Shown: positions 36,961 to 61,433 of the stretch, piece by piece
Layout of the letters: each line of letters begins with the position of its first letter
Numbering within the stretch: the first letter of the stretch is position 1
Assembly: GCA_963921825.1 (NCBI GenBank)
Contig: OY997588.1
Location: 121,529,329 to 121,593,328 of the forward strand
DNA: 64,000 bases
Source of the DNA: Erodium maritimum
Taxonomy: Eukaryota > Streptophyta > Magnoliopsida > Geraniales > Geraniaceae
Reading direction: 5' to 3'
Translations under genes and position numbers: made by a program
The notes under the pieces: generated by a model
What the model was told of the DNA's origin: nothing
The model's database searches: none
Seen by the model: only the letters and a program-made list of their open reading frames with translations

Positions 36961-37024
36961 ACTGTCTGTTTGAACTTGTTTGTGATTGTGATTGGTTACT
37001 GGTTACTGGCGGAGGTTGTGTGGT

Positions 37025-37225
37025 GTAGCTAGCCTCCCGACTGGGATCGGGAGAAGTGGAGGGGTTGTGGGCTAGCTCCCCGACTGGGATCGGGGGAAGG
37101 ACGCGCGGGTGTGGCTAACCACCCGACTGGGATCGGGTGAAGCGGAGAGGTTGTGGGTTAGCCCCCCGACTGGGATCGGGGGAAGTTGCGCGACAGGTCG
37201 ACCGCCTGTACCGACTGGGATCGGA
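37025..37225. repeat. CCCGACTGGGATCGGG repeats in the solo LTR
   Basis: The near-palindrome cccgactgggatcggg occurs five times at spacings of about 50-60 bp. It corresponds in position to the 48-bp repeats of the array LTR (44224-44415). Confidence 0.8.
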
Positions 37226-37755
37226 AAGGGCAGGATACAGAGTTTTGGTTACTGAGCAGCTGGTTTGCGATCCTTTGTGATCTTGTTTGGTATTGCGATC
37301 CTTGGAGGAGGTCGTCGATCGTAGTGTGGGGTCTACTTAACGTATCCGAGTGTTGAGTCAGTTGAGGAAAGTACTGGTCGTGTGTGTGTCTTTGAGTCGT
37401 TGTTGGTGTCATCGGCTTTGTCTACTAATTATGCCATAGTCAGTATGTTATCTGTGGTGGTGAGCGAACGCTCACCCCTAGCTGCTTTTCCTACAGGTAC
37501 CGTTCGTAGTCTGGACTAGGTGAGCTTCTGAAGCTTGAAGAGCCTGAAGCGGGTTGCTGGGTGTTTTGAGTCTAGAGACGTGTATCTCGTTTTGTCCACG
37601 TGTGGGACTTTTATTTTTTGAGATGTAAATAATATTCTTTTGTGGAACTAAACTGACTTTTAAAATGATTTAACGAAAACAGGTTTCAGTTTTGTAACTT
37701 CTTAAACGTTCGCGTCCCTAGTTTCGGTTCGCTGAAATTGGGGCGTGACAACAGT

Positions 37756-38415: not shown

Positions 38416-38715
38416 CTAAATATTAAATTTAAACATCAATGGGATGGGTTGAACATATAGAGTTGATTTACTAGAATTCAAAAATGAATCTCCCACACTA
38501 AAGGGAATTTCGACATCATGCTCGATGTCTAGTAAAATAAAATCAATGGGAGATTCAAATACAACCCCTATCTTGAGAGCATCTTCCATAGAACACCTTA
38601 AATATCTAATAGATTTGTCAGCCAACTCTAAAAATACTATGGGAGGATTCGGCTAAACAAGAGTTTGTGAACTATTTTCTATAATTATACAATCATTATT
38701 TACATCTAACGAATT
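38416..38715 (-). pseudogene. Protease fragment of the Athila/Tat-like element
   Basis: The minus-strand frame reads ADKSIRYLRCSMEDALKIG, then ESPIDFILLDIEHDVEIPF. This matches the C-terminal half of the aspartic protease region of Athila/Tat elements (family pattern ADRSIKYPRGIVEDVLV ... PVDFVVLDME ... IPLILGRPFL). The active-site half expected upstream is missing: sequence on that side ends at 38715, where the tandem array begins. This places the array inside the element, between gag and protease. Confidence 0.8.
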
Positions 38716-39546
38716 TCACCGGAAAACGTGAAATTTCTCTCCCAAACACCTCTAAAACGTCTCCACCACCTCTCTAATCTCTACACAACCCTAAACCAAA
38801 TTTTATAACCAAACTCTAGCTCTTGAAAATAATCGAAACGAGAATCGGTTCGGGTATTACCGTAGAGGAGAATGAGGGGAACGTGATTGCTCTTTGCTTC
38901 AAGACGATCCAAAGGTTTGATTTTCCTCCAAACCCTAACTTCCCTCTCTTCCTTCTTCTTCTTCTTCTCCTTCTCTCTCTAAACTCTCTCTTCTTCTTTT
39001 CTAATTAAAATAACTAACACAAAACACAACTTTCCCCCCTTTAACCATGTGTTTCGGCCAACACACCACAACCATCCATTTTCCCCCCAAAACTAACTCC
39101 ACCAAGTAGTTGACATGTGTCAAGGTGGGTCCCACACCTTTTGGAAAATATCTAGTTGATATTTTCCAATCAGATTCGCGAAACAGGGACGTTTCGGGCC
39201 CCGAACGGGCACTTTTCCCAAGAAAATTTTAAACTGGACGGGCTTCAAGGAAACGGCCCAACTAAGACCGCTACGACGACGGCTAAGCTTTTTGGGTCCA
39301 AAACGGTCCTCGAATGGACCAAAACGTCGCTCGGGTGACTTTTCCAACGAAAAATCAATCTTTCCCAAATTGACCAGAAAGTTGCCCTGAGTCCCCCGTA
39401 ACTCATTTTAGTCGATAACGGGGTCAACTTAAGTCCGGTATGACCCTCGGGGTCAATTTAAGTTAAGTTAAGTGTCTGTCTTAAAAATTTTAAATTTTCC
39501 TGTTTTTCGCAGGTTTGACTGAGAGTGACCGGGAGTGGTTATTACA
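38716..39546 (-). repeat. Array LTR a (truncated, 831 bp)
   Basis: Matches 45638-46468 almost exactly. One private base is visible: C at 39184, where the other copies have A. It is truncated at the 3' end of the LTR in element orientation. Confidence 0.95.
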
Positions 39547-39596
39547 ATCTACCCCCCTTAAAGGAATTTCGTCCGCGAAATTTAGAACAACGCACG

Positions 39597-41640
39597 TCAG
39601 GAGTCGAACCGGTCGGGGTACTTCGCGCGAACCTCGTCCTCGCGTTCCCAATTCGACTCGGCCTCGTGGTGTCGCCACAACACCAGCTCTAAGCGGATAA
39701 CCTTTCCGCGCAGGACCTGCTCTCGTGGATCCCTTTCCCGCATCGGTTTCTCCTTACACGGGACATCACCCGTTACCTCGACATCTGCCCATTTAATGAC
39801 GTACTCAAGACCTCGAAAGGCCCGATACACTGCGGGGCTAACCCGCCTCTGCCGCGGTTGAAACGCATTAGTCCATCTTTCGGGCTCACCTCCTGGGATA
39901 CATGATCACTGAATGCTGGCTCGAGAGGTCGGCGCCGTCAGTCAGCATAGCTCCTGCTGACTCTGCGCGGTCTTCAACCGCTCACGCCTTGGCACGACCA
40001 ACTTAGCTGTCTCTCGATCCAGTTCTAGACCCAGTAACCTCTTATTTCTCACTTCTGCCCAGCACACGGGCGACCGACACGGCCTATCACACAACGCTTC
40101 AAACGGTGCCATCATGATACTGGCCTGAAAGCTGTTGTTGTAGGCGAACTCGGCCAATCACTCACGAAACCCATCGTGACGTGCCCCCACTTCCGCCGTG
40201 CAACCGGCGGTGGCTGCAATAATCCAGCGGGACGCTGTTGTTCGGCTCTCACCTACCGACGGGCGAGGCATCGCGATACTAACTCCGCGACCGCTCTCCG
40301 CATCCCGCTCCACTAGACATGCCACCTGATGTCGCGCTCCTCTTAGTGCTATTCACATGCATTGTTAGACGCGAATGCTGCGACTTTCGTAGCTCATCGC
40401 CTCTGCCGTCACGCGGTATGTACAAACCTCCACGATACTGTAACTCCCAATTAGTACAACGATCCCAGCCCTCGGCATCCGTACCGCCGGCAACCAACTC
40501 CCGGATCCTGGTCGTCCACAAAACACCATCACAAACTGATTTAAGAACAGCCGGGCTATACTGTTCATCAGGTCCAAGAACGTTGCAGGTGCGTTCGGTA
40601 GTTCAAAGTCATCACCCAGAACTCGTAATGTTCATAGCATGTCCGGAATGCAGTCCTTGCGACGTCCCCCTCTCGGACTCGCAACTGGTAGTATCCGGAT
40701 CGCAGGTCGATCTTCGAGAAAAACGTCGACCCTCTCAACTGGTAGAACAGGTCATCAATTTTCGGCATCGGGCATCGGTCATTCACCGTAATCCAGTTCA
40801 GTTTCCGGTAGTCCATGCACATCCGAAGCTCTCCACTCTTCTTCTTCACGAAGAGTGATGGCGCTCCCCACGGCGATGTGCTCGGACGAATAAGCCCCTT
40901 CTCCCGAAGTTCCTCGAGCTGACCCTTCAGCTCGGTCAACTCGGCTGGCGCGAACCTGTAAGGCGCCATCGATATCGCTGCCGTTCCCGACACCAGGTCA
41001 ATCCTGAAATCCACCTCACGAACTGGTGGCAACCTGCTCAATTCCTTAGGGAAGACCTCGGGGAACTCGCACACCACTCGTGGTAATCCTCGGCTCTGCT
41101 CGGCCGATACTTCCTTTACTACAGACAAGCCGACAGGAGAAACTCCGATCCTACTGCCAAGAATACACGAACCTTTTGTGTTGCCTGTTGACACCGCCAC
41201 TCGTCGCCTGTAATAGGCGATAATGACTTGGTACTTCGCTCGCCAATCCATTCCCAGGATCACGTCAAGGCGGTCATTTCGTGTGTATCCTTCCCACGGA
41301 TACACGCACAAGCTCAGTCGCTGCTAAAACTCACGGACCCTCGCGGTCTCTCTAAGACCTCGCTCCACTATCGTCGTCGTGCCTACCAACTCCCAACATA
41401 CCCGATCCTCGGGTTGAGGAGCCCTCTCTCGAACCTCTTGTACCGGTTCGCTTCTCTAACTCCGCAGGCACGACAGACCCTAGTTATCACCACCTCACCA
41501 CCAACCGACGTGTCACGACGCAGGGGTGGACTCAACGGCTCTAAACTCAGCCCCAACCTCTCAGCACAACTCGACGAACAAACGAGTGTGATAACCCGAC
41601 ATCCAATGAAACTGACGCCCAAAACGGAAACCGAACACCC
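39597..41640 (-). pseudogene. Deleted pol: protease, partial RT, partial integrase (copy 1)
   Basis: In minus-strand order: protease in shifted frames (LGLSLEPLSPPL and VGGEVVITRVCR, 41383-41622; [15 protein letters not shown], about 41265); RT from 41100 ([52 protein letters not shown]); a further RT piece ending LNQFVMVF at about 40520. There the catalytic F(V/I)DD motif should follow, but the sequence jumps to integrase linker and zinc-region blocks (GGLYIPRDGRGDELRKSQHS). The RT active site, RNase H and most of the integrase core are absent. After an integrase tail (LAEFAYNNSFQASIMMAPF) comes a chromodomain-like end (REQVLRGKVIRLELVLWRHH). It cannot make a working polymerase. Confidence 0.9.
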
Positions 41641-42479
41641 ACTCCATTAGTTACCCTGGTAAGGTCTAGTGTAACCCTCACACGGTCCTCTAGGCATTAC
41701 TTGTAACTTTCCGCAACCAAACCAGTGTTCGCTACTCGTCCCTTGCGGGAAAAGTAGTAAAGGGGATGAGCGTTATGCTCACCTCCACAGACACCCGTTC
41801 GATTATGGCATACTAGTAAAGCACTAAAGACTTACCGATCTAACCAGGGCAGACCACTACCTCAAAACCTGATGCAAAACGTCACACTGCTCACGCTATC
41901 AACACCTCAAGTACTCGCTTACGTAAGATAAAACTCGACACGGGGAACACTTCCTCAATTCAGTAATCACTATTGTTCACAACCTCAATACCCCAAAGAC
42001 CCGATCACGTAGGGAAACCTCAAACGGGGATCATGTTCTCAACTAAGCCAACATTGTTGCTCACCATATCGATACCCCAGTTACTCGATCGTGTAGGGAA
42101 CCTCAATTAACCCACTCGCGTGAAGGAAACCTCAATCACCCGTTCACGCGAGGGAAAACTCGAACACTCGTTTACATAGGGAAAACCTGGTTCGCATGGC
42201 ACCGCAGCGCACCAACCCTAACCTCTCTCCGTGGTGAGACTCTCACACCGAGGCATTGTACTACTACCGTACGTTATCGATGAATCTCGAACCCAAGCCC
42301 TCATAACTTAACACCGAGCCTACGGCCTCTACAACCCACAACCGCGAACACAGTCACGTAAAACCAACGCTCAAACCGCACGAACGTGAACCGAGTCACA
42401 CAACCCCGAACCTAAACGCACAACGAAACAACGAATTTTTTTTTTTTTTGAAGATAACCGGCTGGACCGATCCGGCACA

Positions 42480-42735
42480 CGACCCGGGCCGTGCCACCTT
42501 CCGGGCCGGTAACCAAGCCGGGCCGTTCCCCATACCGGGCCGGCACCAAGGCCCTGTCGCGCCCCCTACCGGGCCGGCACCTAACCCGTGTCGTGCCCCT
42601 TACCGGGCCGACAACCAAACCGTGCCGGGCCGCTTACCGGGCCGGCGTCCGAACTCTGCCGCGCCCCTTACCGGGCCGGCGTACAAACCGTTCCGTCTCA
42701 CCTACCGGGCCGGTACTCCGTCCTGCCCATTTCAC
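42480..42735. repeat. GC-rich 34-bp repeat, copy 1
   Basis: Seven units built on taccgggccggcacc at about 34-35 bp spacing. It lies just after a run of T (42437-42450). Frames across it (42412-42813, both strands) are composition artefacts. Confidence 0.9.
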
Positions 42736-42947
42736 CTCCTGGGCCAAACCAGTGACCCCGATTTCCTAGCGGTGATAATTTCGCACTACTTACACCCGCT
42801 ATGTCTACCCTAGGGTATTCGTAACTTTCCCGGCTAATAGCGACCCGTACACTAGTACGTCGCAAACAACGACCACCAAACACATAACACAGTTACGGCA
42901 ACTCAAGACTGACGTCAAACACAAGCCAACACGGCCGAGTAACAACA

Positions 42948-43325
42948 ATACACGCCCACCGGGCCAACCAACACCGAACCACGCCCACCGGGCCAAGCAC
43001 AATCAAACACACACGCCCACAGCGTCAAACAAAATCAAAACACGCTCACCGGACCAACCAGTCTTACACACACGCCCACAGGGCTGGTCAAAATCAAATA
43101 CGCCCACCGGGCCAACCAACTTACACACACGCCCACAGGGCCAACCAACTTACACACACGCCCACAGGGCCAACCAAAATCAAAACACGCTCACCGGACC
43201 AACCAGTCTTACACACACGCCCACAGGGCCGGTCAAAATCAAATACGCCCACCGGGCCAACCAACTTACACACACGCCCACAGGGCCAACCAACTTACAC
43301 ACACGCCCACAGGGCCAACCATTTT
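42948..43325. repeat. 29-bp repeat CACACACGCCCACAGGGCC, copy 1
   Basis: Units of about 29 bp (ccaaccaacttacacacacg, then cccacaggg), with some variants tacgcccaccgggcc. They fill the space between the GC-rich repeat and the primer-site region. Confidence 0.9.
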
Positions 43326-43645
43326 TAAAACTTTCTCCGCTTCATTTTTAAAACCTCATACTTGACATCACGCAGTTACAACCCGGTCCAGGCGTCCCCG
43401 ACTACGTTGTACCGACTTGATATCAGCACCGTCACGTTCGACTACAGGAGCGCTCCTGAGTCGACCCGCGACAGCTTAAAAACTTTTCACGCAGCAATAC
43501 ACAAACAGTATGCCAGTAACACCGTACTGCACATACACACAAACACAAGCAGGACTCACAACACTACGGGTCTACACTGACTCGACCCTCCCCACCTAAT
43601 TGACGGACAGTCCGAGGTGTGAAACCTCGAGCTCTGATACCAAGC

Positions 43646-46468
43646 TGTCACGCCCCAATTTCAGTAAACCGAACTAGGGACGCGAACGTTTAAAAACATG
43701 AACACTTGAAACCTGTTTTCAATAAAAGCTTTGACATTTCCATTTACTTCTCAAAATAATAGTATTTACAATACAAAAACGTCCCAACAAGTGGACAAGG
43801 TACAACATCCATTACTAGACTCAACAAAAAGTAAAGACCAGACTCCGCTCCAAGCTCCATGAACTTCAAGAGCTAACCTAGTCCGTCCGGTGATCAGTAC
43901 CTGTAGGAAAAGCAGCTAGGGGTGAGCGTTCGCTCACCTCCACGGATAACAGACTGACTATGGCATAATTAGCAGAAAAAGCCAGTAACACTAAAACCAA
44001 ACCCAACGCCGGGACTACAGTCCCCAACTCAAGTACTCAACTGACCCACAACCCGTCACCTTCCTCAACAGACTCGACACTCGATAAAAACAGTGTAGAC
44101 CCAATACAACTATCGACGACCTCCTCAAGGACTCGAACGAAACGACACAACACCAAACAAGATCACAAAGGATCGCACACCAGCTGCTCAGTAACCAATC
44201 TCAATCAGGTCAGGGTTCGACCTATCGCAATTCCTCGACACGAAGTCGGATCAGGCTGTCGACCTTTCAAACTCGCAATTCCTCGACACTAAGTCGGATC
44301 AGGCTGTCGACCTTTAAAACTCGCAATTCATCGACACTAAGTCGGATCAGGCTGTCGACCTTTAGAACTCGCAATTCATCGACACTAAGTCGGATCAGGC
44401 TGTCGACCTTTAGAACTCACCACCCCAGGTAACCACAATCACAATCACAGGAAAGTTCAATCACACAGGCACTCAAGGCCACTCAAGACACCTCAACAGT
44501 CAAGACTCGGGTTCAACAACCCCACGGGCACTCGCTGCCACTCAAGACACCAAATTAAATACACGGCTCTCATGGCCACCCCGACTCAACAATTAAATAC
44601 GGGCTCTCAAGGCCACCCAAACTCAACAATTAAATACGGGCTCTCAAGGCCACCCAAACTCAACAATTAAATAAAACGCACGACAACCTCCGGCATACTC
44701 GATGCCTCCAACGGTCCTAAAATCACTAGTTTCACAAACAACCTCCGGGCATGGTCATATGCCTCCAGTAATTCAATTATCGCTAAGTTCTCTGTTCCTA
44801 CGACACTACTAAGTGTCACATGCTTTTCTCTTGAACGCTACAATCCCGTATCATGCTTTTCTAATATTTAAATAATTCTACTCAACCCACGACACCCCGG
44901 TGTCACATGCAATTCTACTATTAACTTTCCCTAATCAGGGCCGAGATCCGGCTACTTTTCCCTACCTCGTATATAGATCCAAAAGCGGTCCAACAAAACC
45001 CGAAGTACACCCAGTCACTCGCCGAGCTTCCCTTTGTCTCGGTCCGTAGCACGATCTAACAGAACACAAATTTAAAGTACCTTTAAACTAGTACGAATAA
45101 ACCGAAAAATAACATACTTAACGCCCAAACGTAACCCCGACAATGCCGATCACTCCCAAACTTCCCCATTACTCGATATTGCCGAAAAAGGACCCGTAAG
45201 GGCCAGATTCGCCCGACATGGCGAATCTGCCCGGTTTTGGTTAATTGCCTTCCGGGGCTCCAAAAGCCCCCGTTTTCGTTTCCACGGTCTTAGAATAAAT
45301 CAAGGAACTCAACGCACTTGACGGAATCGAATTCCGACTTCTAAATCAATTAATTAACGTTTAAAGTTTCCCAAAACCTGTTAATTACAACTTCTCCAAT
45401 TTAATTCCAAAATTCGATTCGGTTTGGGATAAATGGTCCGGGGAACGTTTTAAACTACCCGAGTAATTAAAACACGAACAACCGAGCACGTGGGCCCCAC
45501 CCAAAGGGCTTGGCCGTGCCCTAGGGTTTGAGGGAGGGGCTCGGCCACCAAGTGGTGGCTGCTTCCACCTCCGGCCAGCCACCACATGGCCGGCCGGCCA
45601 CCACCCACGGTGGCCGGAGCTCCTCCCGAGCCTCCGGTCACCGGAAAACGTGAAATTTCTCTCCCAAACACCTCTAAAACGTCTCCACCACCTCTCTAAT
45701 CTCTACACAACCCTAAACCAAATTTTATAACCAAACTCTAGCTCTTGAAAATAATCGAAACGAGAATCGGTTCGGGTATTACCGTAGAGGAGAATGAGGG
45801 GAACGTGATTGCTCTTTGCTTCAAGACGATCCAAAGGTTTGATTTTCCTCCAAACCCTAACTTCCCTCTCTTCCTTCTTCTTCTTCTTCTCCTTCTCTCT
45901 CTAAACTCTCTCTTCTTCTTTTCTAATTAAAATAACTAACACAAAACACAACTTTCCCCCCTTTAACCATGTGTTTCGGCCAACACACCACAACCATCCA
46001 TTTTCCCCCCAAAACTAACTCCACCAAGTAGTTGACATGTGTCAAGGTGGGTCCCACACCTTTTGGAAAATATCTAGTTGATATTTTCCAATCAGATTCG
46101 CGAAAAAGGGACGTTTCGGGCCCCGAACGGGCACTTTTCCCAAGAAAATTTTAAACTGGACGGGCTTCAAGGAAACGGCCCAACTAAGACCGCTACGACG
46201 ACGGCTAAGCTTTTTGGGTCCAAAACGGTCCTTGAATGGACCAAAACGTCGCTCGGGTGACTTTTCCAACGAAAAATCAATCTTTCCCAAATTGACCAGA
46301 AAGTTGCCCTGAGTCCCCCGTAACTCATTTTAGTCGATAACGGGGTCAACTTAAGTCCGGTATGACCCTCGGGGTCAATTTAAGTTAAGTTAAGTGTCTG
46401 TCTTAAAAATTTTAAATTTTCCTGTTTTTCGCAGGTTTGACTGAGAGTGACCGGGAGAGGTTATTACA
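43646..46468 (-). repeat. Array LTR b (2823 bp)
   Basis: Starts TGTCACGCCCC and ends GGTTATTACA in plus orientation. It has two private bases, T at 46233 and A at 46458. It includes the conserved dyad at 43921-43938 and 48-bp repeats at 44224-44415. Confidence 0.95.
44224..44415. repeat. 48-bp tandem repeat in LTR b, four copies
   Basis: AAGTCGGATCAGGCTGTCG recurs at 44243, 44291, 44339 and 44387, exactly 48 bp apart. The same array is in LTR c (about 51146-51337) and LTR d (about 58069-58260). Confidence 0.95.
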
Positions 46469-49400
46469 ATCTACCCCCCTTAAAGGAATTTCGTCCGCGA
46501 AATTTAGAACAACGCACGTCAGGAGTCGAACCGGTCGGGGTACTTCGCGCGAACCTCGTCCTCGCGTTCCCAATTCGACTCGGCCTCGTGGTGTCGCCAC
46601 AACACCAGCTCTAAGCGGATAACCTTTCCGCGCAGGACCTGCTCTCGTGGATCCCTTTCCCGCATCGGTTTCTCCTTACACGGGACATCACCCGTTACCT
46701 CGACATCTGCCCATTTAATGACGTACTCAAGACCTCGAAAGGCCCGATACACTGCGGGGCTAACCCGCCTCTGCCGCGGTTGAAACGCATTAGTCCATCT
46801 TTCGGGCTCACCTCCTGGGATACATGATCACTGAATGCTGGCTCGAGAGGTCGGCGCCGTCAGTCAGCATAGCTCCTGCTGACTCTGCGCGGTCTTCAAC
46901 CGCTCACGCCTTGGCACGACCAACTTAGCTGTCTCTCGATCCAGTTCTAGACCCAGTAACCTCTTATTTCTCACTTCTGCCCAGCACACGGGCGACCGAC
47001 ACGGCCTATCACACAACGCTTCAAACGGTGCCATCATGATACTGGCCTGAAAGCTGTTGTTGTAGGCGAACTCGGCCAATCACTCACGAAACCCATCGTG
47101 ACGTGCCCCCACTTCCGCCGTGCAACCGGCGGTGGCTGCAATAATCCAGCGGGACGCTGTTGTTCGGCTCTCACCTACCGACGGGCGAGGCATCGCGATA
47201 CTAACTCCGCGACTGCTCTCCGCATCCCGCTCCACTAGACATGCCACCTGATGTCGCGCTCCTCTTAGTGCTATTCACATGCATTGTTAGACGCGAATGC
47301 TGCGACTTTCGTAGCTCATCGCCTCTGCCGTCACGCGGTATGTACAAACCTCCACGATACTGTAACTCCCAATTAGTACAACGATCCCAGCCCTCGGCAT
47401 CCGTACCGCCGGCAACCAACTCCCGGATCCTGGTCGTCCACAAAACACCATCACAAACTGATTTAAGAACAGCCGGGCTATACTGTTCATCAGGTCCAAG
47501 AACGTTGCAGGTGCGTTCGGTAGTTCAAAGTCATCACCCAGAACTCGTAATGTTCATAGCATGTCCGGAATGCAGTCCTTGCGACGTCCCCCTCTCGGAC
47601 TCGCAACTGGTAGTATCCGGATCGCAGGTCGATCTTCGAGAAAAACGTCGACCCTCTCAACTGGTAGAACAGGTCATCAATTTTCGGCATCGGGCATCGG
47701 TCATTCACCGTAATCCAGTTCAGTTTCCGGTAGTCCATGCACATCCGAAGCTCTCCACTCTTCTTCTTCACGAAGAGTGATGGCGCTCCCCACGGCGATG
47801 TGCTCGGACGAATAAGCCCCTTCTCCCGAAGTTCCTCGAGCTGACCCTTCAGCTCGGTCAACTCGGCTGGCGCGAACCTGTAAGGCGCCATCGATATCGC
47901 TGCCGTTCCCGGCACCAGGTCAATCCTGAAATCCACCTCACGAACTGGTGGCAACCTGCTCAATTCCTTAGGGAAGACCTCGGGGAACTCGCACACCACT
48001 CGTGGTAATCCTCGGCTCTGCTCGGCCGATACTTCCTTTACTACAGACAAGCCGACAGGAGAAACTCCGATCCTACTGCCAAGAATACACGAACCTTTCG
48101 TGTTGCCTGTTGACACCGCCACTCGTCGCCTGTAATAGGCGATAATGACTTGGTACTTCGCTCGCCAATCCATTCCCAGGATCACGTCAAGGCGGTCATT
48201 TCGTGTGTATCCTTCCCACGGATACACGCACAAGCTCAGTCGCTGCTAAAACTCACGGACCCTCGCGGTCTCTCTAAGACCTCGCTCCACTATCGTCGTC
48301 GTGCCTACCAACTCCCAACATACCCGATCCTCGGGTTGAGGAGCCCTCTCTCGAACCTCTTGTACCGGTTCGCTTCTCTAACTCCGCAGGCACGACAGAC
48401 CCTAGTTAACACCACCTCACCACCAACCGACGTGTCACGACGCAGGGGTGGACTCAACGGCTCTAAACTCAGCCCCAACCTCTCAGCACAACTCGACGAA
48501 CAAACGAGTGTGATAACCCGACATCCAATGAAACTGACGCCCAAAACGGAAACCGAACACCCACTCCATTAGTTACCCTGGTAAGGTCTAGTGTAACCCT
48601 CACACGGTCCTCTAGGCATTACTTGTAACTTTCCGCAACCAAACCAGTGTTCGCTACTCGTCCCTTGCGGGAAAAGTAGTAAAGGGGATGAGCGTTATGC
48701 TCACCTCCACGGACACCCGTTCGATTATGGCATACTAGTAAAGCACTAAAGACTTACCGATCTAACCAGGGCAGACCACTACCTCAAAACCTGATGCAAA
48801 ACGTCACACTGCTCACGCTATCAACACCTCAAGTACTCGCTTACGTAAGATAAAACTCGACACGGGGAACACTTCCTCAATTCAGTAATCACTATTGTTC
48901 ACAACCTCAATACCCCAAAGACCCGATCACGTAGGGAAACCTCAAACGGGGATCATGTTCTCAACTAAGCCAACATTGTTGCTCACCATATCGATACCCC
49001 AGTTACTCGATCGTGTAGGGAACCTCAATTAACCCACTCGCGTGAAGGAAACCTCAATCACCCGTTCACGCGAGGGAAAACTCGAACACTCGTTTACATA
49101 GGGAAAACCTGGTTCGCATGGCACCGCAGCGCACCAACCCTAACCTCTCTCCGTGGTGAGACTCTCACACCGAGGCATTGTACTACTACCGTACGTTATC
49201 GATGAATCTCGAACCCAAGCCCTCATAACTTAACACCGAGCCTACGGCCTCTACAACCCACAACCGCGAACACAGTCACGTAAAACCAACGCTCAAACCG
49301 CACGAACGTGAACCGAGTCACACAACCCCGAACCTAAACGCACAACGAAACAACGAATTTTTTTTTTTTTTGAAGATAACCGGCTGGACCGATCCGGCAC

Positions 49401-50567
49401 ACGACCCGGGCCGTGCCACCTTCCGGGCCGGTAACCAAGCCGGGCCGTTCCCCATACCGGGCCGGCACCAAGGCCCTGTCGCGCCCCCTACCGGGCCGGC
49501 ACCTAACCCGTGTCGTGCCCCTTACCGGGCCGACAACCAAACCGTGCCGGGCCGCTTACCGGGCCGGCGTCCGAACTCTGCCGCGCCCCTTACCGGGCCG
49601 GCGTACAAACCGTTCCGTCTCACCTACCGGGCCGGTACTCCGTCCTGCCCATTTCACCTCCTGGGCCAAACCAGTGACCCCGATTTCCTAGCGGTGATAA
49701 TTTCGCACTACTTACACCCGCTATGTCTACCCTAGGGTATTCGTAACTTTCCCGGCTAATAGCGACCCGTACACTAGTACGTCGCAAACAACGACCACCA
49801 AACACATAACACAGTTACGGCAACTCAAGACTGACGTCAAACACAAGCCAACACGGCCGAGTAACAACAATACACGCCCACCGGGCCAACCAACACCGAA
49901 CCACGCCCACCGGGCCAAGCACAATCAAACACACACGCCCACAGCGTCAAACAAAATCAAAACACGCTCACCGGACCAACCAGTCTTACACACACGCCCA
50001 CAGGGCTGGTCAAAATCAAATACGCCCACCGGGCCAACCAACTTACACACACGCCCACAGGGCCAACCAACTTACACACACGCCCACAGGGCCAACCAAA
50101 ATCAAAACACGCTCACCGGACCAACCAGTCTTACACACACGCCCACAGGGCCGGTCAAAATCAAATACGCCCACCGGGCCAACCAACTTACACACACGCC
50201 CACAGGGCCAACCAACTTACACACACGCCCACAGGGCCAACCATTTTTAAAACTTTCTCCGCTTCATTTTTAAAACCTCATACTTGACATCACGCAGTTA
50301 CAACCCGGTCCAGGCGTCCCCGACTACGTTGTACCGACTTGATATCAGCACCGTCACGTTCGACTACAGGAGCGCTCCTGAGTCGACCCGCGACAGCTTA
50401 AAAACTTTTCACGCAGCAATACACAAACAGTATGCCAGTAACACCGTACTGCACATACACACAAACACAAGCAGGACTCACAACACTACGGGTCTACACT
50501 GACTCGACCCTCCCCACCTAATTGACGGACAGTCCGAGGTGTGAAACCTCGAGCTCTGATACCAAGC
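46469..50567 (-). mobile_element. Array internal region 2
   Basis: 4099 bp, the same layout as internal 1: purine tract at 46469-46482, primer site at 50551-50564, T-run at about 49359, GC-rich repeat at 49402-49657, 29-bp repeat at 49870-50247. Private bases are T at 47214 and G at 48711. Confidence 0.93.
46519..48562 (-). pseudogene. Deleted pol (copy 2)
   Basis: The same domain remnants and the same deletion as 39597-41640. It shares G at 47912, C at 48099 and A at 48409 with copy 3 against copy 1. Confidence 0.9.
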
Positions 50568-53390
50568 TGTCACGCCCCAATTTCAGTAAACCGAACTAGG
50601 GACGCGAACGTTTAAAAACATGAACACTTGAAACCTGTTTTCAATAAAAGCTTTGACATTTCCATTTACTTCTCAAAATAATAGTATTTACAATACAAAA
50701 ACGTCCCAACAAGTGGACAAGGTACAACATCCATTACTAGACTCAACAAAAAGTAAAGACCAGACTCCGCTCCAAGCTCCATGAACTTCAAGAGCTAACC
50801 TAGTCCGTCCGGTGATCAGTACCTGTAGGAAAAGCAGCTAGGGGTGAGCGTTCGCTCACCTCCACGGATAACAGACTGACTATGGCATAATTAGCAGAAA
50901 AAGCCAGTAACACTAAAACCAAACCCAACGCCGGGACTACAGTCCCCAACTCAAGTACTCAACTGACCCACAACCCGTCACCTTCCTCAACAGACTCGAC
51001 ACTCGATAAAAACAGTGTAGACCCAATACAACTATCGACGACCTCCTCAAGGACTCGAACGAAACGACACAACACCAAACAAGATCACAAAGGATCGCAC
51101 ACCAGCTGCTCAGTAACCAATCTCAATCAGGTCAGGGTTCGACCTATCGCAATTCCTCGACACGAAGTCGGATCAGGCTGTCGACCTTTCAAACTCGCAA
51201 TTCCTCGACACTAAGTCGGATCAGGCTGTCGACCTTTAAAACTCGCAATTCATCGACACTAAGTCGGATCAGGCTGTCGACCTTTAGAACTCGCAATTCA
51301 TCGACACTAAGTCGGATCAGGCTGTCGACCTTTAGAACTCACCACCCCAGGTAACCACAATCACAATCACAGGAAAGTTCAATCACACAGGCACTCAAGG
51401 CCACTCAAGACACCTCAACAGTCAAGACTCGGGTTCAACAACCCCACGGGCACTCGCTGCCACTCAAGACACCAAATTAAATACACGGCTCTCATGGCCA
51501 CCCCGACTCAACAATTAAATACGGGCTCTCAAGGCCACCCAAACTCAACAATTAAATACGGGCTCTCAAGGCCACCCAAACTCAACAATTAAATAAAACG
51601 CACGACAACCTCCGGCATACTCGATGCCTCCAACGGTCCTAAAATCACTAGTTTCACAAACAACCTCCGGGCATGGTCATATGCCTCCAGTAATTCAATT
51701 ATCGCTAAGTTCTCTGTTCCTACGACACTACTAAGTGTCACATGCTTTTCTCTTGAACGCTACAATCCCGTATCATGCTTTTCTAATATTTAAATAATTC
51801 TACTCAACCCACGACACCCCGGTGTCACATGCAATTCTACTATTAACTTTCCCTAATCAGGGCCGAGATCCGGCTACTTTTCCCTACCTCGTATATAGAT
51901 CCAAAAGCGGTCCAACAAAACCCGAAGTACACCCAGTCACTCGCCGAGCTTCCCTTTGTCTCGGTCCGTAGCACGATCTAACAGAACACAAATTTAAAGT
52001 ACCTTTAAACTAGTACGAATAAACCGAAAAATAACATACTTAACGCCCAAACGTAACCCCGACAATGCCGATCACTCCCAAACTTCCCCATTACTCGATA
52101 TTGCCGAAAAAGGACCCGTAAGGGCCAGATTCGCCCGACATGGCGAATCTGCCCGGTTTTGGTTAATTGCCTTCCGGGGCTCCAAAAGCCCCCGTTTTCG
52201 TTTCCACGGTCTTAGAATAAATCAAGGAACTCAACGCACTTGACGGAATCGAATTCCGACTTCTAAATCAATTAATTAACGTTTAAAGTTTCCCAAAACC
52301 TGTTAATTACAACTTCTCCAATTTAATTCCAAAATTCGATTCGGTTTGGGATAAATGGTCCGGGGAACGTTTTAAACTACCCGAGTAATTAAAACACGAA
52401 CAACCGAGCACGTGGGCCCCACCCAAAGGGCTTGGCCGTGCCCTAGGGTTTGAGGGAGGGGCTCGGCCACCAAGTGGTGGCTGCTTCCACCTCCGGCCAG
52501 CCACCACATGGCCGGCCGGCCACCACCCACGGTGGCCGGAGCTCCTCCCGAGCCTCCGGTCACCGGAAAACGTGAAATTTCTCTCCCAAACACCTCTAAA
52601 ACGTCTCCACCACCTCTCTAATCTCTACACAACCCTAAACCAAATTTTATAACCAAACTCTAGCTCTTGAAAATAATCGAAACGAGAATCGGTTCGGGTA
52701 TTACCGTAGAGGAGAATGAGGGGAACGTGATTGCTCTTTGCTTCAAGACGATCCAAAGGTTTGATTTTCCTCCAAACCCTAACTTCCCTCTCTTCCTTCT
52801 TCTTCTTCTTCTCCTTCTCTCTCTAAACTCTCTCTTCTTCTTTTCTAATTAAAATAACTAACACAAAACACAACTTTCCCCCCTTTAACCATGTGTTTCG
52901 GCCAACACACCACAACCATCCATTTTCCCCCCAAAACTAACTCCACCAAGTAGTTGACATGTGTCAAGGTGGGTCCCACACCTTTTGGAAAATATCTAGT
53001 TGATATTTTCCAATCAGATTCGCGAAAAAGGGACGTTTCGGGCCCCGAACGGGCACTTTTCCCAAGAAAATTTTAAACTGGACGGGCTTCAAGGAAACGG
53101 CCCAACTAAGACCGCTACGACGACGGCTAAGCTTTTTGGGTCCAAAACGGTCCTCGAATGGACCAAAACGTCGCTCGGGTGACTTTTCCAACGAAAAATC
53201 AATCTTTCCCAAATTGACCAGAAAGTTGCCCTGAGTCCCCCGTAACTCATTTTAGTCGATAACGGGGTCAACTTAAGTCCGGTATGACCCTCGGGGTCAA
53301 TTTAAGTTAAGTTAAGTGTCTGTCTTAAAAATTTTAAATTTTCCTGTTTTTCGCAGGTTTGACTGAGAGTGACCGGGAGTGGTTATTACA
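50568..53390 (-). repeat. Array LTR c (2823 bp)
   Basis: Same termini as LTR b. The conserved dyad is at 50843-50860 and the 48-bp repeats are at about 51146-51337. Confidence 0.95.
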
Positions 53391-56300
53391 ATCTACCCCC
53401 CTTAAAGGAATTTCGTCCGCGAAATTTAGAACAACGCACGTCAGGAGTCGAACCGGTCGGGGTACTTCGCGCGAACCTCGTCCTCGCGTTCCCAATTCGA
53501 CTCGGCCTCGTGGTGTCGCCACAACACCAGCTCTAAGCGGATAACCTTTCCGCGCAGGACCTGCTCTCGTGGATCCCTTTCCCGCATCGGTTTCTCCTTA
53601 CACGGGACATCACCCGTTACCTCGACATCTGCCCATTTAATGACGTACTCAAGACCTCGAAAGGCCCGATACACTGCGGGGCTAACCCGCCTCTGCCGCG
53701 GTTGAAACGCATTAGTCCATCTTTCGGGCTCACCTCCTGGGATACATGATCACTGAATGCTGGCTCGAGAGGTCGGCGCCGTCAGTCAGCATAGCTCCTG
53801 CTGACTCTGCGCGGTCTTCAACCGCTCACGCCTTGGCACGACCAACTTAGCTGTCTCTCGATCCAGTTCTAGACCCAGTAACCTCTTATTTCTCACTTCT
53901 GCCCAGCACACGGGCGACCGACACGGCCTATCACACAACGCTTCAAACGGTGCCATCATGATACTGGCCTGAAAGCTGTTGCTGTAGGCGAACTCGGCCA
54001 ATCACTCACGAAACCCATCGTGACGTGCCCCCACTTCCGCCGTGCAACCGGCGGTGGCTGCAATAATCCAGCGGGACGCTGTTGTTCGGCTCTCACCTAC
54101 CGACGGGCGAGGCATCGCGATACTAACTCCGCGACCGCTCTCCGCATCCCGCTCCACTAGACATGCCACCTGATGTCGCGCTCCTCTTAGTGCTATTCAC
54201 ATGCATTGTTAGACGCGAATGCTGCGACTTTCGTAGCTCATCGCCTCTGCCGTCACGCGGTATGTACAAACCTCCACGATACTGTAACTCCCAATTAGTA
54301 CAACGATCCCAGCCCTCGGCATCCGTACCGCCGGCAACCAACTCCCGGATCCTGGTCGTCCACAAAACACCATCACAAACTGATTTAAGAACAGCCGGGC
54401 TATACTGTTCATCAGGTCCAAGAACGTTGCAGGTGCGTTCGGTAGTTCAAAGTCATCACCCAGAACTCGTAATGTTCATAGCATGTCCGGAATGCAGTCC
54501 TTGCGACGTCCCCCTCTCGGACTCGCAACTGGTAGTATCCGGATCGCAGGTCGATCTTCGAGAAAAACGTCGACCCTCTCAACTGGTAGAACAGGTCATC
54601 AATTTTCGGCATCGGGCATCGGTCATTCACCGTAATCCAGTTCAGTTTCCGGTAGTCCATGCACATCCGAAGCTCTCCACTCTTCTTCTTCACGAAGAGT
54701 GATGGCGCTCCCCACGGCGATGTGCTCGGACGAATAAGCCCCTTCTCCCGAAGTTCCTCGAGCTGACCCTTCAGCTCGGTCAACTCGGCTGGCGCGAACC
54801 TGTAAGGCGCCATCGATATCGCTGCCGTTCCCGGCACCAGGTCAATCCTGAAATCCACCTCACGAACTGGTGGCAACCTGCTCAATTCCTTAGGGAAGAC
54901 CTCGGGGAACTCGCACACCACTCGTGGTAATCCTCGGCTCTGCTCGGCCGATACTTCCTTTACTACAGACAAGCCGACAGGAGAAACTCCGATCCTACTG
55001 CCAAGAATACACGAACCTTTCGTGTTGCCTGTTGACACCGCCACTCGTCGCCTGTAATAGGCGATAATGACTTGGTACTTCGCTCGCCAATCCATTCCCA
55101 GGATCACGTCAAGGCGGTCATTTCGTGTGTATCCTTCCCACGGATACACGCACAAGCTCAGTCGCTGCTAAAACTCACGGACCCTCGCGGTCTCTCTAAG
55201 ACCTCGCTCCACTATCGTCGTCGTGCCTACCAACTCCCAACATACCCGATCCTCGGGTTGAGGAGCCCTCTCTCGAACCTCTTGTACCGGTTCGCTTCTC
55301 TAACTCCGCAGGCACGACAGACCCTAGTTAACACCACCTCACCACCAACCGACGTGTCACGACGCAGGGGTGGACTCAACGGCTCTAAACTCAGCCCCAA
55401 CCTCTCAGCACAACTCGACGAACAAACGAGTGTGATAACCCGACATCCAATGAAACTGACGCCCAAAACGGAAACCGAACACCCACTCCATTAGTTACCC
55501 TGGTAAGGTCTAGTGTAACCCTCACACGGTCCTCTAGGCATTACTTGTAACTTTCCGCAACCAAACCAGTGTTCGCTACTCGTCCCTTGCGGGAAAAGTA
55601 GTAAAGGGGATGAGCGTTATGCTCACCTCCACAGACACCCGTTCGATTATGGCATACTAGTAAAGCACTAAAGACTTACCGATCTAACCAGGGCAGACCA
55701 CTACCTCAAAACCTGATGCAAAACGTCACACTGCTCACGCTATCAACACCTCAAGTACTCGCTTACGTAAGATAAAACTCGACACGGGGAACACTTCCTC
55801 AATTCAGTAATCACTATTGTTCACAACCTCAATACCCCAAAGACCCGATCACGTAGGGAAACCTCAAACGGGGATCATGTTCTCAACTAAGCCAACATTG
55901 TTGCTCACCATATCGATACCCCAGTTACTCGATCGTGTAGGGAACCTCAATTAACCCACTCGCGTGAAGGAAACCTCAATCACCCGTTCACGCGAGGGAA
56001 AACTCGAACACTCGTTTACATAGGGAAAACCTGGTTCGCATGGCACCGCAGCGCACCAACCCTAACCTCTCTCCGTGGTGAGACTCTCACACCGAGGCAT
56101 TGTACTACTACCGTACGTTATCGATGAATCTCGAACCCAAGCCCTCATAACTTAACACCGAGCCTACGGCCTCTACAACCCACAACCGCGAACACAGTCA
56201 CGTAAAACCAACGCTCAAACCGCACGAACGTGAACCGAGTCACACAACCCCGAACCTAAACGCACAACGAAACAACGAATTTTTTTTTTTTTTTGAAGAT

Positions 56301-57490
56301 AACCGGCTGGACCGATCCGGCACACGACCCGGGCCGTGCCACCTTCCGGGCCGGTAACCAAGCCGGGCCGTTCCCCATACCGGGCCGGCACCAAGGCCCT
56401 GTCGCGCCCCCTACCGGGCCGGCACCTAACCCGTGTCGTGCCCCTTACCGGGCCGACAACCAAACCGTGCCGGGCCGCTTACCGGGCCGGCGTCCGAACT
56501 CTGCCGCGCCCCTTACCGGGCCGGCGTACAAACCGTTCCGTCTCACCTACCGGGCCGGTACTCCGTCCTGCCCATTTCACCTCCTGGGCCAAACCAGTGA
56601 CCCCGATTTCCTAGCGGTGATAATTTCGCACTACTTACACCCGCTATGTCTACCCTAGGGTATTCGTAACTTTCCCGGCTAATAGCGACCCGTACACTAG
56701 TACGTCGCAAACAACGACCACCAAACACATAACACAGTTACGGCAACTCAAGACTGACGTCAAACACAAGCCAACACGGCCGAGTAACAACAATACACGC
56801 CCACCGGGCCAACCAACACCGAACCACGCCCACCGGGCCAAGCACAATCAAACACACACGCCCACAGCGTCAAACAAAATCAAAACACGCTCACCGGACC
56901 AACCAGTCTTACACACACGCCCACAGGGCTGGTCAAAATCAAATACGCCCACCGGGCCAACCAACTTACACACACGCCCACAGGGCCAACCAACTTACAC
57001 ACACGCCCACAGGGCCAACCAAAATCAAAACACGCTCACCGGACCAACCAGTCTTACACACACGCCCACAGGGCCGGTCAAAATCAAATACGCCCACCGG
57101 GCCAACCAACTTACACACACGCCCACAGGGCCAACCAACTTACACACACGCCCACAGGGCCAACCATTTTTAAAACTTTCTCCGCTTCATTTTTAAAACC
57201 TCATACTTGACATCACGCAGTTACAACCCGGTCCAGGCGTCCCCGACTACGTTGTACCGACTTGATATCAGCACCGTCACGTTCGACTACAGGAGCGCTC
57301 CTGAGTCGACCCGCGACAGCTTAAAAACTTTTCACGCAGCAATACACAAACAGTATGCCAGTAACACCGTACTGCACATACACACAAACACAAGCAGGAC
57401 TCACAACACTACGGGTCTACACTGACTCGACCCTCCCCACCTAATTGACGGACAGTCCGAGGTGTGAAACCTCGAGCTCTGATACCAAGC
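53391..57490 (-). mobile_element. Array internal region 3
   Basis: 4100 bp, the same layout, with one extra T in the T-run at about 56280-56294. The primer site is at 57474-57487. The GC-rich repeat is at 56325-56580 and the 29-bp repeat at 56793-57170. Private base C at 53982. Confidence 0.93.
53441..55484 (-). pseudogene. Deleted pol (copy 3)
   Basis: The same remnants and deletion as copies 1 and 2. It agrees with copy 2 at 54834, 55021 and 55331, and with copy 1 at 54136 and 55633. Confidence 0.9.
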
Positions 57491-60313
57491 TGTCACGCCC
57501 CAATTTCAGTAAACCGAACTAGGGACGCGAACGTTTAAAAACATGAACACTTGAAACCTGTTTTCAATAAAAGCTTTGACATTTCCATTTACTTCTCAAA
57601 ATAATAGTATTTACAATACAAAAACGTCCCAACAAGTGGACAAGGTACAACATCCATTACTAGACTCAACAAAAAGTAAAGACCAGACTCCGCTCCAAGC
57701 TCCATGAACTTCAAGAGCTAACCTAGTCCGTCCGGTGATCAGTACCTGTAGGAAAAGCAGCTAGGGGTGAGCGTTCGCTCACCTCCACGGATAACAGACT
57801 GACTATGGCATAATTAGCAGAAAAAGCCAGTAACACTAAAACCAAACCCAACGCCGGGACTACAGTCCCCAACTCAAGTACTCAACTGACCCACAACCCG
57901 TCACCTTCCTCAACAGACTCGACACTCGATAAAAACAGTGTAGACCCAATACAACTATCGACGACCTCCTCAAGGACTCGAACGAAACGACACAACACCA
58001 AACAAGATCACAAAGGATCGCACACCAGCTGCTCAGTAACCAATCTCAATCAGGTCAGGGTTCGACCTATCGCAATTCCTCGACACGAAGTCGGATCAGG
58101 CTGTCGACCTTTCAAACTCGCAATTCCTCGACACTAAGTCGGATCAGGCTGTCGACCTTTAAAACTCGCAATTCATCGACACTAAGTCGGATCAGGCTGT
58201 CGACCTTTAGAACTCGCAATTCATCGACACTAAGTCGGATCAGGCTGTCGACCTTTAGAACTCACCACCCCAGGTAACCACAATCACAATCACAGGAAAG
58301 TTCAATCACACAGGCACTCAAGGCCACTCAAGACACCTCAACAGTCAAGACTCGGGTTCAACAACCCCACGGGCACTCGCTGCCACTCAAGACACCAAAT
58401 TAAATACACGGCTCTCATGGCCACCCCGACTCAACAATTAAATACGGGCTCTCAAGGCCACCCAAACTCAACAATTAAATACGGGCTCTCAAGGCCACCC
58501 AAACTCAACAATTAAATAAAACGCACGACAACCTCCGGCATACTCGATGCCTCCAACGGTCCTAAAATCACTAGTTTCACAAACAACCTCCGGGCATGGT
58601 CATATGCCTCCAGTAATTCAATTATCGCTAAGTTCTCTGTTCCTACGACACTACTAAGTGTCACATGCTTTTCTCTTGAACGCTACAATCCCGTATCATG
58701 CTTTTCTAATATTTAAATAATTCTACTCAACCCACGACACCCCGGTGTCACATGCAATTCTACTATTAACTTTCCCTAATCAGGGCCGAGATCCGGCTAC
58801 TTTTCCCTACCTCGTATATAGATCCAAAAGCGGTCCAACAAAACCCGAAGTACACCCAGTCACTCGCCGAGCTTCCCTTTGTCTCGGTCCGTAGCACGAT
58901 CTAACAGAACACAAATTTAAAGTACCTTTAAACTAGTACGAATAAACCGAAAAATAACATACTTAACGCCCAAACGTAACCCCGACAATGCCGATCACTC
59001 CCAAACTTCCCCATTACTCGATATTGCCGAAAAAGGACCCGTAAGGGCCAGATTCGCCCGACATGGCGAATCTGCCCGGTTTTGGTTAATTGCCTTCCGG
59101 GGCTCCAAAAGCCCCCGTTTTCGTTTCCACGGTCTTAGAATAAATCAAGGAACTCAACGCACTTGACGGAATCGAATTCCGACTTCTAAATCAATTAATT
59201 AACGTTTAAAGTTTCCCAAAACCTGTTAATTACAACTTCTCCAATTTAATTCCAAAATTCGATTCGGTTTGGGATAAATGGTCCGGGGAACGTTTTAAAC
59301 TACCCGAGTAATTAAAACACGAACAACCGAGCACGTGGGCCCCACCCAAAGGGCTTGGCCGTGCCCTAGGGTTTGAGGGAGGGGCTCGGCCACCAAGTGG
59401 TGGCTGCTTCCACCTCCGGCCAGCCACCACATGGCCGGCCGGCCACCACCCACGGTGGCCGGAGCTCCTCCCGAGCCTCCGGTCACCGGAAAACGTGAAA
59501 TTTCTCTCCCAAACACCTCTAAAACGTCTCCACCACCTCTCTAATCTCTACACAACCCTAAACCAAATTTTATAACCAAACTCTAGCTCTTGAAAATAAT
59601 CGAAACGAGAATCGGTTCGGGTATTACCGTAGAGGAGAATGAGGGGAACGTGATTGCTCTTTGCTTCAAGACGATCCAAAGGTTTGATTTTCCTCCAAAC
59701 CCTAACTTCCCTCTCTTCCTTCTTCTTCTTCTTCTCCTTCTCTCTCTAAACTCTCTCTTCTTCTTTTCTAATTAAAATAACTAACACAAAACACAACTTT
59801 CCCCCCTTTAACCATGTGTTTCGGCCAACACACCACAACCATCCATTTTCCCCCCAAAACTAACTCCACCAAGTAGTTGACATGTGTCAAGGTGGGTCCC
59901 ACACCTTTTGGAAAATATCTAGTTGATATTTTCCAATCAGATTCGCGAAAAAGGGACGTTTCGGGCCCCGAACGGGCACTTTTCCCAAGAAAATTTTAAA
60001 CTGGACGGGCTTCAAGGAAACGGCCCAACTAAGACCGCTACGACGACGGCTAAGCTTTTTGGGTCCAAAACGGTCCTCGAATGGACCAAAACGTCGCTCG
60101 GGTGACTTTTCCAACGAAAAATCAATCTTTCCCAAATTGACCAGAAAGTTGCCCTGAGTCCCCCGTAACTCATTTTAGTCGATAACGGGGTCAACTTAAG
60201 TCCGGTATGACCCTCGGGGTCAATTTAAGTTAAGTTAAGTGTCTGTCTTAAAAATTTTAAATTTTCCTGTTTTTCGCAGGTTTGACTGAGAGTGACCGGG
60301 AGTGGTTATTACA
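57491..60313 (-). repeat. Array LTR d (2823 bp), right end of the array
   Basis: Same termini. In element orientation this is the 5'-most LTR. Its outer edge TGTAATAACC at 60313 directly abuts the gag remnant of the host element. The conserved dyad is at 57766-57783. Confidence 0.95.
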
Positions 60314-60535
60314 TTTTATATCCTTCTCTAACATTTGGTTCATGAAAGCAAGACACAATTTTTCAAGTGATGACTCCTCATCTTGAGATAATTGTGGTTC
60401 AACTTAATAACCTTGATCAAAAGTAGAAGCGTCCTCCCAATATTGATTATAGGAAATTGAATTCACAAAATACTCACAATCATAGTTAGCTCCACACAAA
60501 TCACAATACACATTATTATCATACAAATTCTCCAT
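60314..60535 (-). pseudogene. Gag C-terminal fragment of the Athila/Tat-like element
   Basis: From an ATG at 60535 the minus strand reads NNVYCDLCGANYDCEYF, then YNQYWEDASTFDQGY, a stop, then SSLEKLCLAFMNQMLEKD. The Cys-rich start and the SLExLxxxFM block resemble the gag end of Athila/Tat elements. It lies only about 100 bp from the primer site, so most of gag is already deleted. The array starts right after it. Confidence 0.65.
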
Positions 60536-60628: not shown

Positions 60629-60648
60629 TGCTGCCCGACAACGCGCCA
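60629..60648 (-). promoter_or_regulatory. Primer binding site of the Athila/Tat-like element
   Basis: On the minus strand TGGCGCGTTGTCGGGCAGC directly follows the LTR end. It resembles the TGGCGCCGTTGCCGGGG-type sites of Athila/Tat elements, which use a tRNA other than iMet, with changes. Confidence 0.6.
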
Positions 60649-60649
60649 A

Positions 60650-61295: not shown

Positions 61296-61433
61296 CACGA
61301 GGTTATGGGTAACTCACATCAAGGCCCATAACTACCCAAGGTCCAAATTGCACAAAGTTATGAGGATCGAAGCTTTTAAGCCGAAGTTATTATTTTGTAG
61401 TCTTTAACTGTATTAAAGATTAGATTTAAACTC

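What the first reader, a model, noticed from the sequence alone, without database searches (positions are those of the whole stretch)
38716..60313. Head-to-tail tandem array of a whole LTR retrotransposon sharing single LTRs
LTR-internal-LTR-internal-LTR-internal-LTR with a constant 6922-6923 bp period is directly visible. Ordinary retrotransposition gives one internal region flanked by two LTRs and a target duplication. Shared LTRs instead point to unequal recombination between LTRs, or insertion of a multimeric extrachromosomal circle. Such an array could be an early step towards a retrotransposon-derived satellite. Near identity means recent expansion, ongoing homogenisation, or an assembly error.
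Basis: partly seen in the sequence, partly recalled or inferred. Interest (0 to 1): 0.88.

Follow-up and report, generated by a model that had tools for sequence, protein, structure and literature searches.

The report
Three-unit tandem LTR retrotransposon array
A plant chromosome carries three nearly identical copies of a disabled jumping element joined head to tail with shared end repeats, a recently described and fairly common kind of structure that most likely arose when the element's long end repeats recombined with each other after one insertion.

Summary
In detail: 38716-60313 is a head-to-tail array of units of 6922, 6922 and 6923 bp plus 831 bp, differing at 9 substitutions and 1 indel. 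The anatomy needs correcting. The element is on the minus strand, its true LTR is 2823 bp and its internal region 4.1 kb, with a PBS and polypurine tract. The leftmost LTR is truncated to its first 831 bp. The right end is an exact LTR terminus; on the left about 0.3 kb of host DNA present in copies without the array is missing, so a deletion took the 3' end and target duplication. In the own genome 4 of 34 other junctions fetched, at 3 loci, are also shared LTRs; one dimer has a perfect TSD. At a C6 array LTRs differ ten times more than internals (9/3009 versus 1/3340, P 0.0085), favouring recombination after insertion; the window array itself does not discriminate. Such arrays are described as common in plants (PMC11899658). 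New member of a known kind; copy number needs spanning reads.

The parts
57491..60313 (-). 5' LTR (L1), complete, 2823 bp, begins TG at 60313, ends ACA at 57491
   Evidence: LTR end motif confirmed in other genome copies
53391..57490 (-). internal region 3 (4100 bp), PBS TGGTATCAGAGC at 57476-57487, polypurine tract next to 53391
50568..53390 (-). shared LTR L2, 2823 bp, identical to L1
46469..50567 (-). internal region 2 (4099 bp), PBS at 50553-50564
43646..46468 (-). shared LTR L3, 2823 bp, 2 private substitutions (LTR positions 11 and 236)
39547..43645 (-). internal region 1 (4099 bp), PBS at 43631-43642
38716..39546 (-). truncated 3' LTR (L4): LTR positions 1-831 only, 1 private substitution (position 363)
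38715..38716 (.). inferred deletion junction: LTR positions 832-2823, the 3' target duplication and about 0.3 kb of host sequence are missing
60313..60314 (.). exact 5' LTR terminus against host sequence (insertion point)
54415..55167 (-). 251 aa open piece: protease tail (RVP_2) and N-terminal half of reverse transcriptase (RVT_1 profile 1-98 of 205); its counterparts in the other two units are at 40568-41323 and 47490-48245 (stop codon included)
53444..53749 (-). 102 aa piece with 4 unnamed relatives (38-68% identical); reads like the C-terminal end of plant Ty3 Pol, chromodomain-like label recalled, no Pfam hit
34442..37750 (+). neighbouring solo LTR of a related, divergent subfamily, with 5 bp duplication ACAGT on both sides (not part of the array)
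63298..64000 (+). start of another related LTR (88% over its first 458 bp), cut by the window end; used as outgroup (not part of the array)

Best explanation
One copy of a non-autonomous Ty3-type element with 2.8 kb LTRs inserted on the minus strand into an older, high-copy repeat. Its exact 5' LTR terminus is still there. Afterwards, recombination between its near-identical LTRs on sister chromatids or homologues (unequal exchange or break repair, reciprocal to solo-LTR formation) added whole LTR+internal units, giving three internal regions that share LTRs. A separate deletion removed LTR positions 832-2823 of the 3' terminal LTR, the target duplication and about 0.3 kb of host. Shown: anatomy, near-identity, common origin of the three units, missing host DNA, and similar arrays elsewhere in the genome. 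Inferred: the recombination step at this locus, and the order of deletion versus expansion.
For: The three units form one clade in a tree of the 1185 bp junction region (local support 0.955): they differ by 1-3 bases from each other, and the nearest of 29 other rows is 6 from unit 3 (five of the 34 fetched junction copies, L029, L033, L034, L041 and L042, were dropped beforehand because their match was too short). The three variable sites in that region are derived: 29 of 29 other rows carry the majority base. Five changes mark the three units off from 15 close copies that I picked from the 29 (one is shared with L017); the four in the LTR part are also in L1, so they predate insertion: one element inserted, not several. 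Only 1 difference separates L1 from L4 in 831 bp. A solo LTR, the reciprocal product, exists in the family (L044, TSD ACATA). In the same family, the C6 array has LTRs differing at 9/3009 but internals at 1/3340 (Fisher P 0.0085), as expected if internals were duplicated after the LTRs had diverged; by 21-mer look-up in 34 loci, 4 of the 9 changes are private to one LTR, 3 to the other and 2 undecided. At the C1 array all 5 LTR differences lie in positions 2054-2735 of 3053 (P 0.004; 0.010 for such a cluster anywhere), as expected if the middle LTR is a crossover chimera. C6 and C1 pooled give P 0.010. The C5 dimer has one perfect TSD, ACATC, so a dimer can derive from a single insertion.
Against: At this locus LTRs and internals diverge equally (L1-L4 1/831 against about 4/4099, Fisher P 1.0), so insertion as a ready-made trimer fits equally well; the data only bound the age of insertion to less than about 6 times the age of triplication. 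C5 does not discriminate either (LTRs identical over 3060, internals 1/3119). The C1 LTR-versus-internal contrast alone is not significant (5/3053 against 1/1545 plus 9 gapped positions, P 0.67), and at one of its 5 LTR differences both alleles occur in nearly all other loci (33 and 34 of 34), probably because it lies in short repeats. At C6 the two junction regions are no closer to each other (3 differences) than to some other copies (2-3). Gene conversion of internals could mimic the C6 pattern. The C6 and C1 arrays are truncated at their ends, so their full LTR sets are not seen.
Confidence: 0.62

Rival explanations
1. The element inserted as a ready-made concatemer: a tandem transcript (for example read-through from a one-LTR circle) or recombined cDNA was integrated in one event by integrase supplied in trans.
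For: LTRs and internals of this array are equally young. The C5 dimer is likewise uniform and has a single TSD. PMC11899658 proposes this route and could not exclude it.
Against: The C6 array contradicts it for that locus (9/3009 versus 1/3340), and the C1 LTR differences are clustered as in a crossover. It needs a packaged genome of 20 kb or more (inference).
Confidence: 0.22
2. Assembly error: a single or double element was expanded, or the copy number is wrong.
For: No read data. Units are 99.9% identical and the array (21.6 kb) exceeds a typical accurate long read (recalled).
Against: Private differences in all three complete units (4, 4, and 1 plus an indel). 4 of 4 C-to-T-type changes, polarised by majority, are in CG/CHG contexts (P 0.037), like natural decay of methylated DNA; the other 5 substitutions are of other types. 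Anchors are at most 6.3 kb apart, so 10-20 kb accurate reads could chain them. The 3' host deletion is an edge not seen in the 11 host copies. Similar arrays occur at three other loci, though in the same assembly.
Confidence: 0.1
3. Homologous recombination of cDNA or a one-LTR circle from other family members into the LTR of a resident element, as described for yeast Ty elements (cited in PMC11899658).
For: The family has many near-identical copies (28 of the 40 scored matches at 97% or more, the window's own four included), so donors existed recently.
Against: Donors from other loci should bring in differences of the between-locus kind (nearest copy 6 per 1185). The units differ by 1-3 and form a clade.
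Confidence: 0.06

Closest known systems
Tandem LTR-RT structures of plants (Morales-Diaz et al. 2025, PMC11899658; text parts 1-4 of 6 read)
   Same: Head-to-tail LTR-RTs sharing internal LTRs; mostly Ty3/gypsy, in rice enriched in Tekay; 80% with LTRs more than 95% identical; one of the two detailed loci lies inside a MULE transposon; 10 of 28 clean Nipponbare cases have perfect 5 nt TSDs.
   Different: Here three internal regions (the two loci they describe in detail have two) and one truncated end with loss of the TSD. This unit keeps only a protease tail and half an RT above Pfam cut-offs; all 28 of theirs contain regions encoding conserved retrotransposon domains.
TRIM/Cassandra tandem arrays (PMC7215508, abstract and outline only; pear 'complex' elements in PMC4668562, passages only)
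   Same: Non-autonomous elements in arrays sharing LTRs; recombination proposed.
   Different: Cassandra is a miniature element with 5S-type LTRs and arrays of at least 12 repeated LTRs; here LTRs are 2.8 kb and remnants of pol remain.
Solo-LTR formation by LTR-LTR recombination
   Same: The reciprocal deletion product; one solo LTR of this family has TSD ACATA (L044), and a divergent related one with TSD ACAGT lies at 34442-37750.
   Different: Here units were gained, not lost.

Membership tests
Tandem LTR-retrotransposon array (shared internal LTRs) | Alternating LTR and internal regions with one LTR between neighbours | tested here: met
Tandem LTR-retrotransposon array (shared internal LTRs) | Starts and ends with an LTR | tested here: inconclusive
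   5' LTR complete; 3' LTR present but only 831 of 2823 bp
Tandem LTR-retrotransposon array (shared internal LTRs) | One target duplication around the whole array (not required; 10 of 28 in rice) | tested here: not met
   no duplication at the window edges; 3' side lacks about 0.3 kb of host. Met by the sister array C5 (ACATC)
Tandem LTR-retrotransposon array (shared internal LTRs) | Confirmed by reads spanning the array | not testable with these tools
   no reads held
LTR retrotransposon | TG...CA LTR ends, PBS after the 5' LTR, polypurine tract before the 3' LTR, 5 bp TSD in single copies | tested here: met
   (TSD GGTTG at the one single copy with both ends fetched, L010/L043)
Ty3/gypsy, Tekay (Del) chromovirus lineage | Ty3-type protease and reverse transcriptase | tested here: met
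   RVP_2 and RVT_1 above cut-off; some of the 120 listed relatives are named Ty3 Gag-Pol
Ty3/gypsy, Tekay (Del) chromovirus lineage | C-terminal chromodomain | tested here: inconclusive
   no Pfam hit at E 0.1; a C-terminal piece with 4 unnamed relatives; label recalled
Ty3/gypsy, Tekay (Del) chromovirus lineage | RT phylogeny within Tekay | not tested
   no reference lineage library at hand
Autonomous element | gag, RNase H and integrase core | tested here: not met
   no match above cut-off in 23 of 23 stop-to-stop pieces (45 aa or more) of unit 3; shorter pieces not scanned

The most novel reading that the evidence does not exclude
This genome holds a natural series of young arrays from one non-autonomous family (window trimer, C5 dimer with TSD, C1 and C6 truncated arrays) in which LTR-versus-internal divergence tells whether an array was made after insertion or inserted as such. 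At C6 and possibly C1 the internals were duplicated after the LTRs had diverged, so LTR-LTR recombination makes tandem arrays in situ, a point left open in PMC11899658.
Probability: 0.45. Interest if true: 0.45.

Novelty: new member of a known kind. Interest (0 to 1): 0.3.

Why it matters
Tandem LTR elements add and remove DNA in steps of one unit and may seed satellites, but how they form is unsettled. A family with several arrays and many single copies in one genome makes the two main models testable with simple counts of LTR and internal differences. By itself this array is an ordinary example.

Tried and rejected
All-singleton variants as evidence for a simultaneous star-like origin: rejected, because with three sequences every biallelic site is 2:1. 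Host reading frame across the joined flanks: one frame stays open across the join, but Pfam found nothing convincing in the flank pieces tried (one match at E 0.17, otherwise none), so the host is named only as a high-copy repeat; its Athila/Tat-like look is recalled, not tested. Microhomology at the deletion junction: none clear by eye in the alignment. eccDNA integration for the C6 array, whose ends lie 256 bp apart in internal coordinates: not adopted, because LTRs of units from one circle should be identical, but they differ at 9/3009; its flanks could not be searched. Organism: the named relatives of the WD40 protein among the 120 listed are eudicots as far as I recall; the species was not identified.
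Full report
1. What is there. Self-comparison of the window finds a direct repeat with period 6922-6923 from 38716 to 60313. Aligning the units gives 6922, 6922, 6923 and a partial 831 bp, with 10 variable columns: 9 substitutions (4 private to unit 1, 4 to unit 2, 1 to unit 3) and a one-base homopolymer difference in unit 3.

2. Corrected anatomy. The element is on the minus strand. A PBS-type 12-mer, TGGTATCAGAGC, occurs once per unit (43631-43642, 50553-50564, 57476-57487). Three bases before it the LTR ends in GGGGCGTGACA, and the inner LTRs start with TGTAATAACC right after a polypurine tract. The LTR is therefore 2823 bp and the internal region 4099-4100 bp. The repeat edge at 38716 lies inside the LTR: the leftmost copy is LTR positions 1-831. 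In the own genome, 34 of 34 fetched internal-LTR junction copies outside the window (L009-L042) carry the LTR end motif with at most one mismatch; in 30 the LTR is followed by flanking DNA and in 4 by the PBS. The structure is LTR-int-LTR-int-LTR-int-partial LTR.

3. Coding content. One search lists 23 stop-to-stop pieces of 45 aa or more on the coding strand of unit 3's internal region; all 23 were scanned against Pfam. One, at 54415-55167, scores above cut-offs, for RVT_1 (profile 1-98 of 205) and for the end of RVP_2. Two others give weak Ty3-like matches below cut-off (SH3_Tf2-1 0.0047, RVP_2 0.011). DUF4266 (0.0052) and Zn_ribbon_IS1595 (0.096) are taken as chance. No gag, RNase H or integrase core was found. 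The C-terminal piece 53444-53749 has 4 unnamed relatives and reads like the end of plant Ty3 Pol; its chromodomain label is recalled and Pfam gives no hit. The three internals are nearly identical and carry nearly the same number of stop codons over three frames (187, 187, 188), so decay predates triplication and the element was probably moved in trans. With an initiator-Met-type PBS (recalled) and long LTRs it is probably Tekay-like; that is a lead, not a test.

4. Site. The 5' end is an exact LTR terminus against host DNA. The left flank (37756-38715) belongs to a high-copy repeat (637 candidates, 40 scored, 42 matches; all but the window itself at 80-85% identity). In 11 of 11 fetched copies without the array (L058-L068) host DNA lies between the places that match the two flanks: 300-321 bp in 10 and 207 bp in one. 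In 8 of the 11 the first 78 bases of the right flank do not align, so the figure is extrapolated; in L067, which aligns to within 3 bases of both edges, it is 309 bp. The window lacks that stretch, a 3' target duplication and LTR positions 832-2823. The simplest reading is one deletion of about 2.3 kb over the 3' edge; an aberrant 3' end at insertion is not excluded. Next to it is a solo LTR of a related, divergent subfamily (34442-37750, TSD ACAGT).

5. Is it real? No reads are held. Private differences in all three complete units, 4 of 4 C-to-T-type changes in CG or CHG contexts (expected 44% each, P 0.037; the other 5 substitutions are of other types), and anchors at most 6.3 kb apart speak against a duplicated assembly. 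Similar arrays elsewhere in this assembly also do. The number three remains to be checked.

6. Relatives in the same genome. The genome holds 763 Mb in 40 contigs; the window is C1:121529329-121593328. Of 8240 candidates for a probe of the internal-LTR junction only 40 were scored, so counts are lower bounds and lean to close relatives. Four matches lie in the window. Of the other 36, 34 contain the junction (three of them, L033, L034 and L041, with a divergent internal end) and 2 only the LTR start (a 5' LTR, L043, and a solo LTR, L044). Four of the 34 junction LTRs (L013, L014, L027, L031) have internal sequence on both sides, at 3 loci. C5:46.30 Mb is a dimer with TSD ACATC on both sides, three identical 3060 bp LTRs and internals differing at 1/3119 compared. 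C1:28.53 Mb has two internals, the outer one truncated, and a 3' end flanked by GGATA. C6:25.06-25.08 Mb is [int 2624-end]-LTR-[int]-LTR-[int 1-2368]. The one single copy with both ends fetched (L010/L043) has TSD GGTTG and LTRs differing at 2/3148.

7. Origin. In a tree of 32 rows over the 1185 bp junction region (three window units and 29 of the 34 fetched copies; five with too short a match, L029, L033, L034, L041 and L042, were dropped) the window units form one clade (local support 0.955). They differ by 1-3 bases, with the nearest other row 6 from unit 3, and the three variable sites are derived against 29 of 29 other rows. Of five changes marking the array off from 15 close copies that I picked from the 29 (one shared with L017), four are in the LTR part and all four are also in L1; because the 5' and 3' LTRs mutate separately after insertion, these predate insertion unless gene conversion spread them. 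So one element inserted. L1 and L2 are identical, L3 has 2 and L4 1 private change. The outgroup LTR at 63298 confirms the two L3 changes as derived and is uninformative for the third. Nine substitutions in 21.6 kb correspond to about 32 thousand years at a recalled rate of 1.3e-8 (95% range 15-61) and 167 thousand at 2.5e-9.

8. How it formed. If units are duplicated after insertion, LTRs can be older than the differences between internals; if a concatemer inserts, both are equally old. At C6 LTRs differ at 9/3009 and internals at 1/3340 (Fisher P 0.0085), and both LTRs carry private changes (4 and 3, two undecided). At C1 the 5 LTR differences all fall in positions 2054-2735 of 3053 (P 0.004, or 0.010 for such a cluster anywhere), but one of them lies where both alleles are common in nearly all loci, and the LTR/internal contrast there is not significant (5/3053 against 1/1545 plus 9 gapped positions, P 0.67). 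Pooled, C6 and C1 give P 0.010. The window and C5 do not discriminate: L1-L4 1/831 against about 4/4099 (P 1.0), which only bounds the age of insertion to under about six times that of triplication. I therefore prefer LTR-LTR recombination after insertion (0.62), with insertion as a concatemer the main rival (0.22).

9. Literature. Tandem LTR elements sharing LTRs are described as common and polymorphic in plants: 266 in a rice pangenome, 28 clean cases in Nipponbare, 82% of the gypsy ones Tekay, 10 of 28 with perfect 5 nt TSDs, mechanism left open (PMC11899658, text parts 1-4 of 6). Pear has 257 'complex' elements with multiple LTRs, nearly all Cassandra (PMC4668562, passages). Cassandra forms arrays with at least 12 LTRs (PMC7215508, abstract). 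[quoted passage not shown] The finding is a new member of a known kind.

Noticed in passing
L051, L014, L054, L013, L046 (C6:25063229-25076886): Array whose two outer internal fragments end at internal positions 2624 and 2368, almost a circularly permuted dimer missing 256 bp. Could be a truncated longer array or insertion of an opened circle. Flank searches did not complete.
   Followed up: partly
window 34442-37750: Solo LTR of a related divergent subfamily with TSD ACAGT, about 1 kb from the array and in opposite orientation.
   Followed up: partly
window 31446-32138 and 60647-61301: Direct repeat of 693 and 655 bp (82%) flanking both the solo LTR and the array; may be the LTRs of the old host element, with a PBS-like stretch (recalled) next to the right copy.
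   Followed up: partly
window 42941-43321, 49863-50243, 56786-57166: Each internal region contains short tandem repeats (29 bp and 145 bp periods) where gag might be expected.
   Followed up: no
window 13710-17999: Another Ty3-type element on the plus strand with RT/RNase H and integrase pieces and a gag match just below cut-off.
   Followed up: no
window 4217-5737: WD40 gene; many of the 120 listed relatives are named JINGUBANG (68-84% identical over the aligned part).
   Followed up: no
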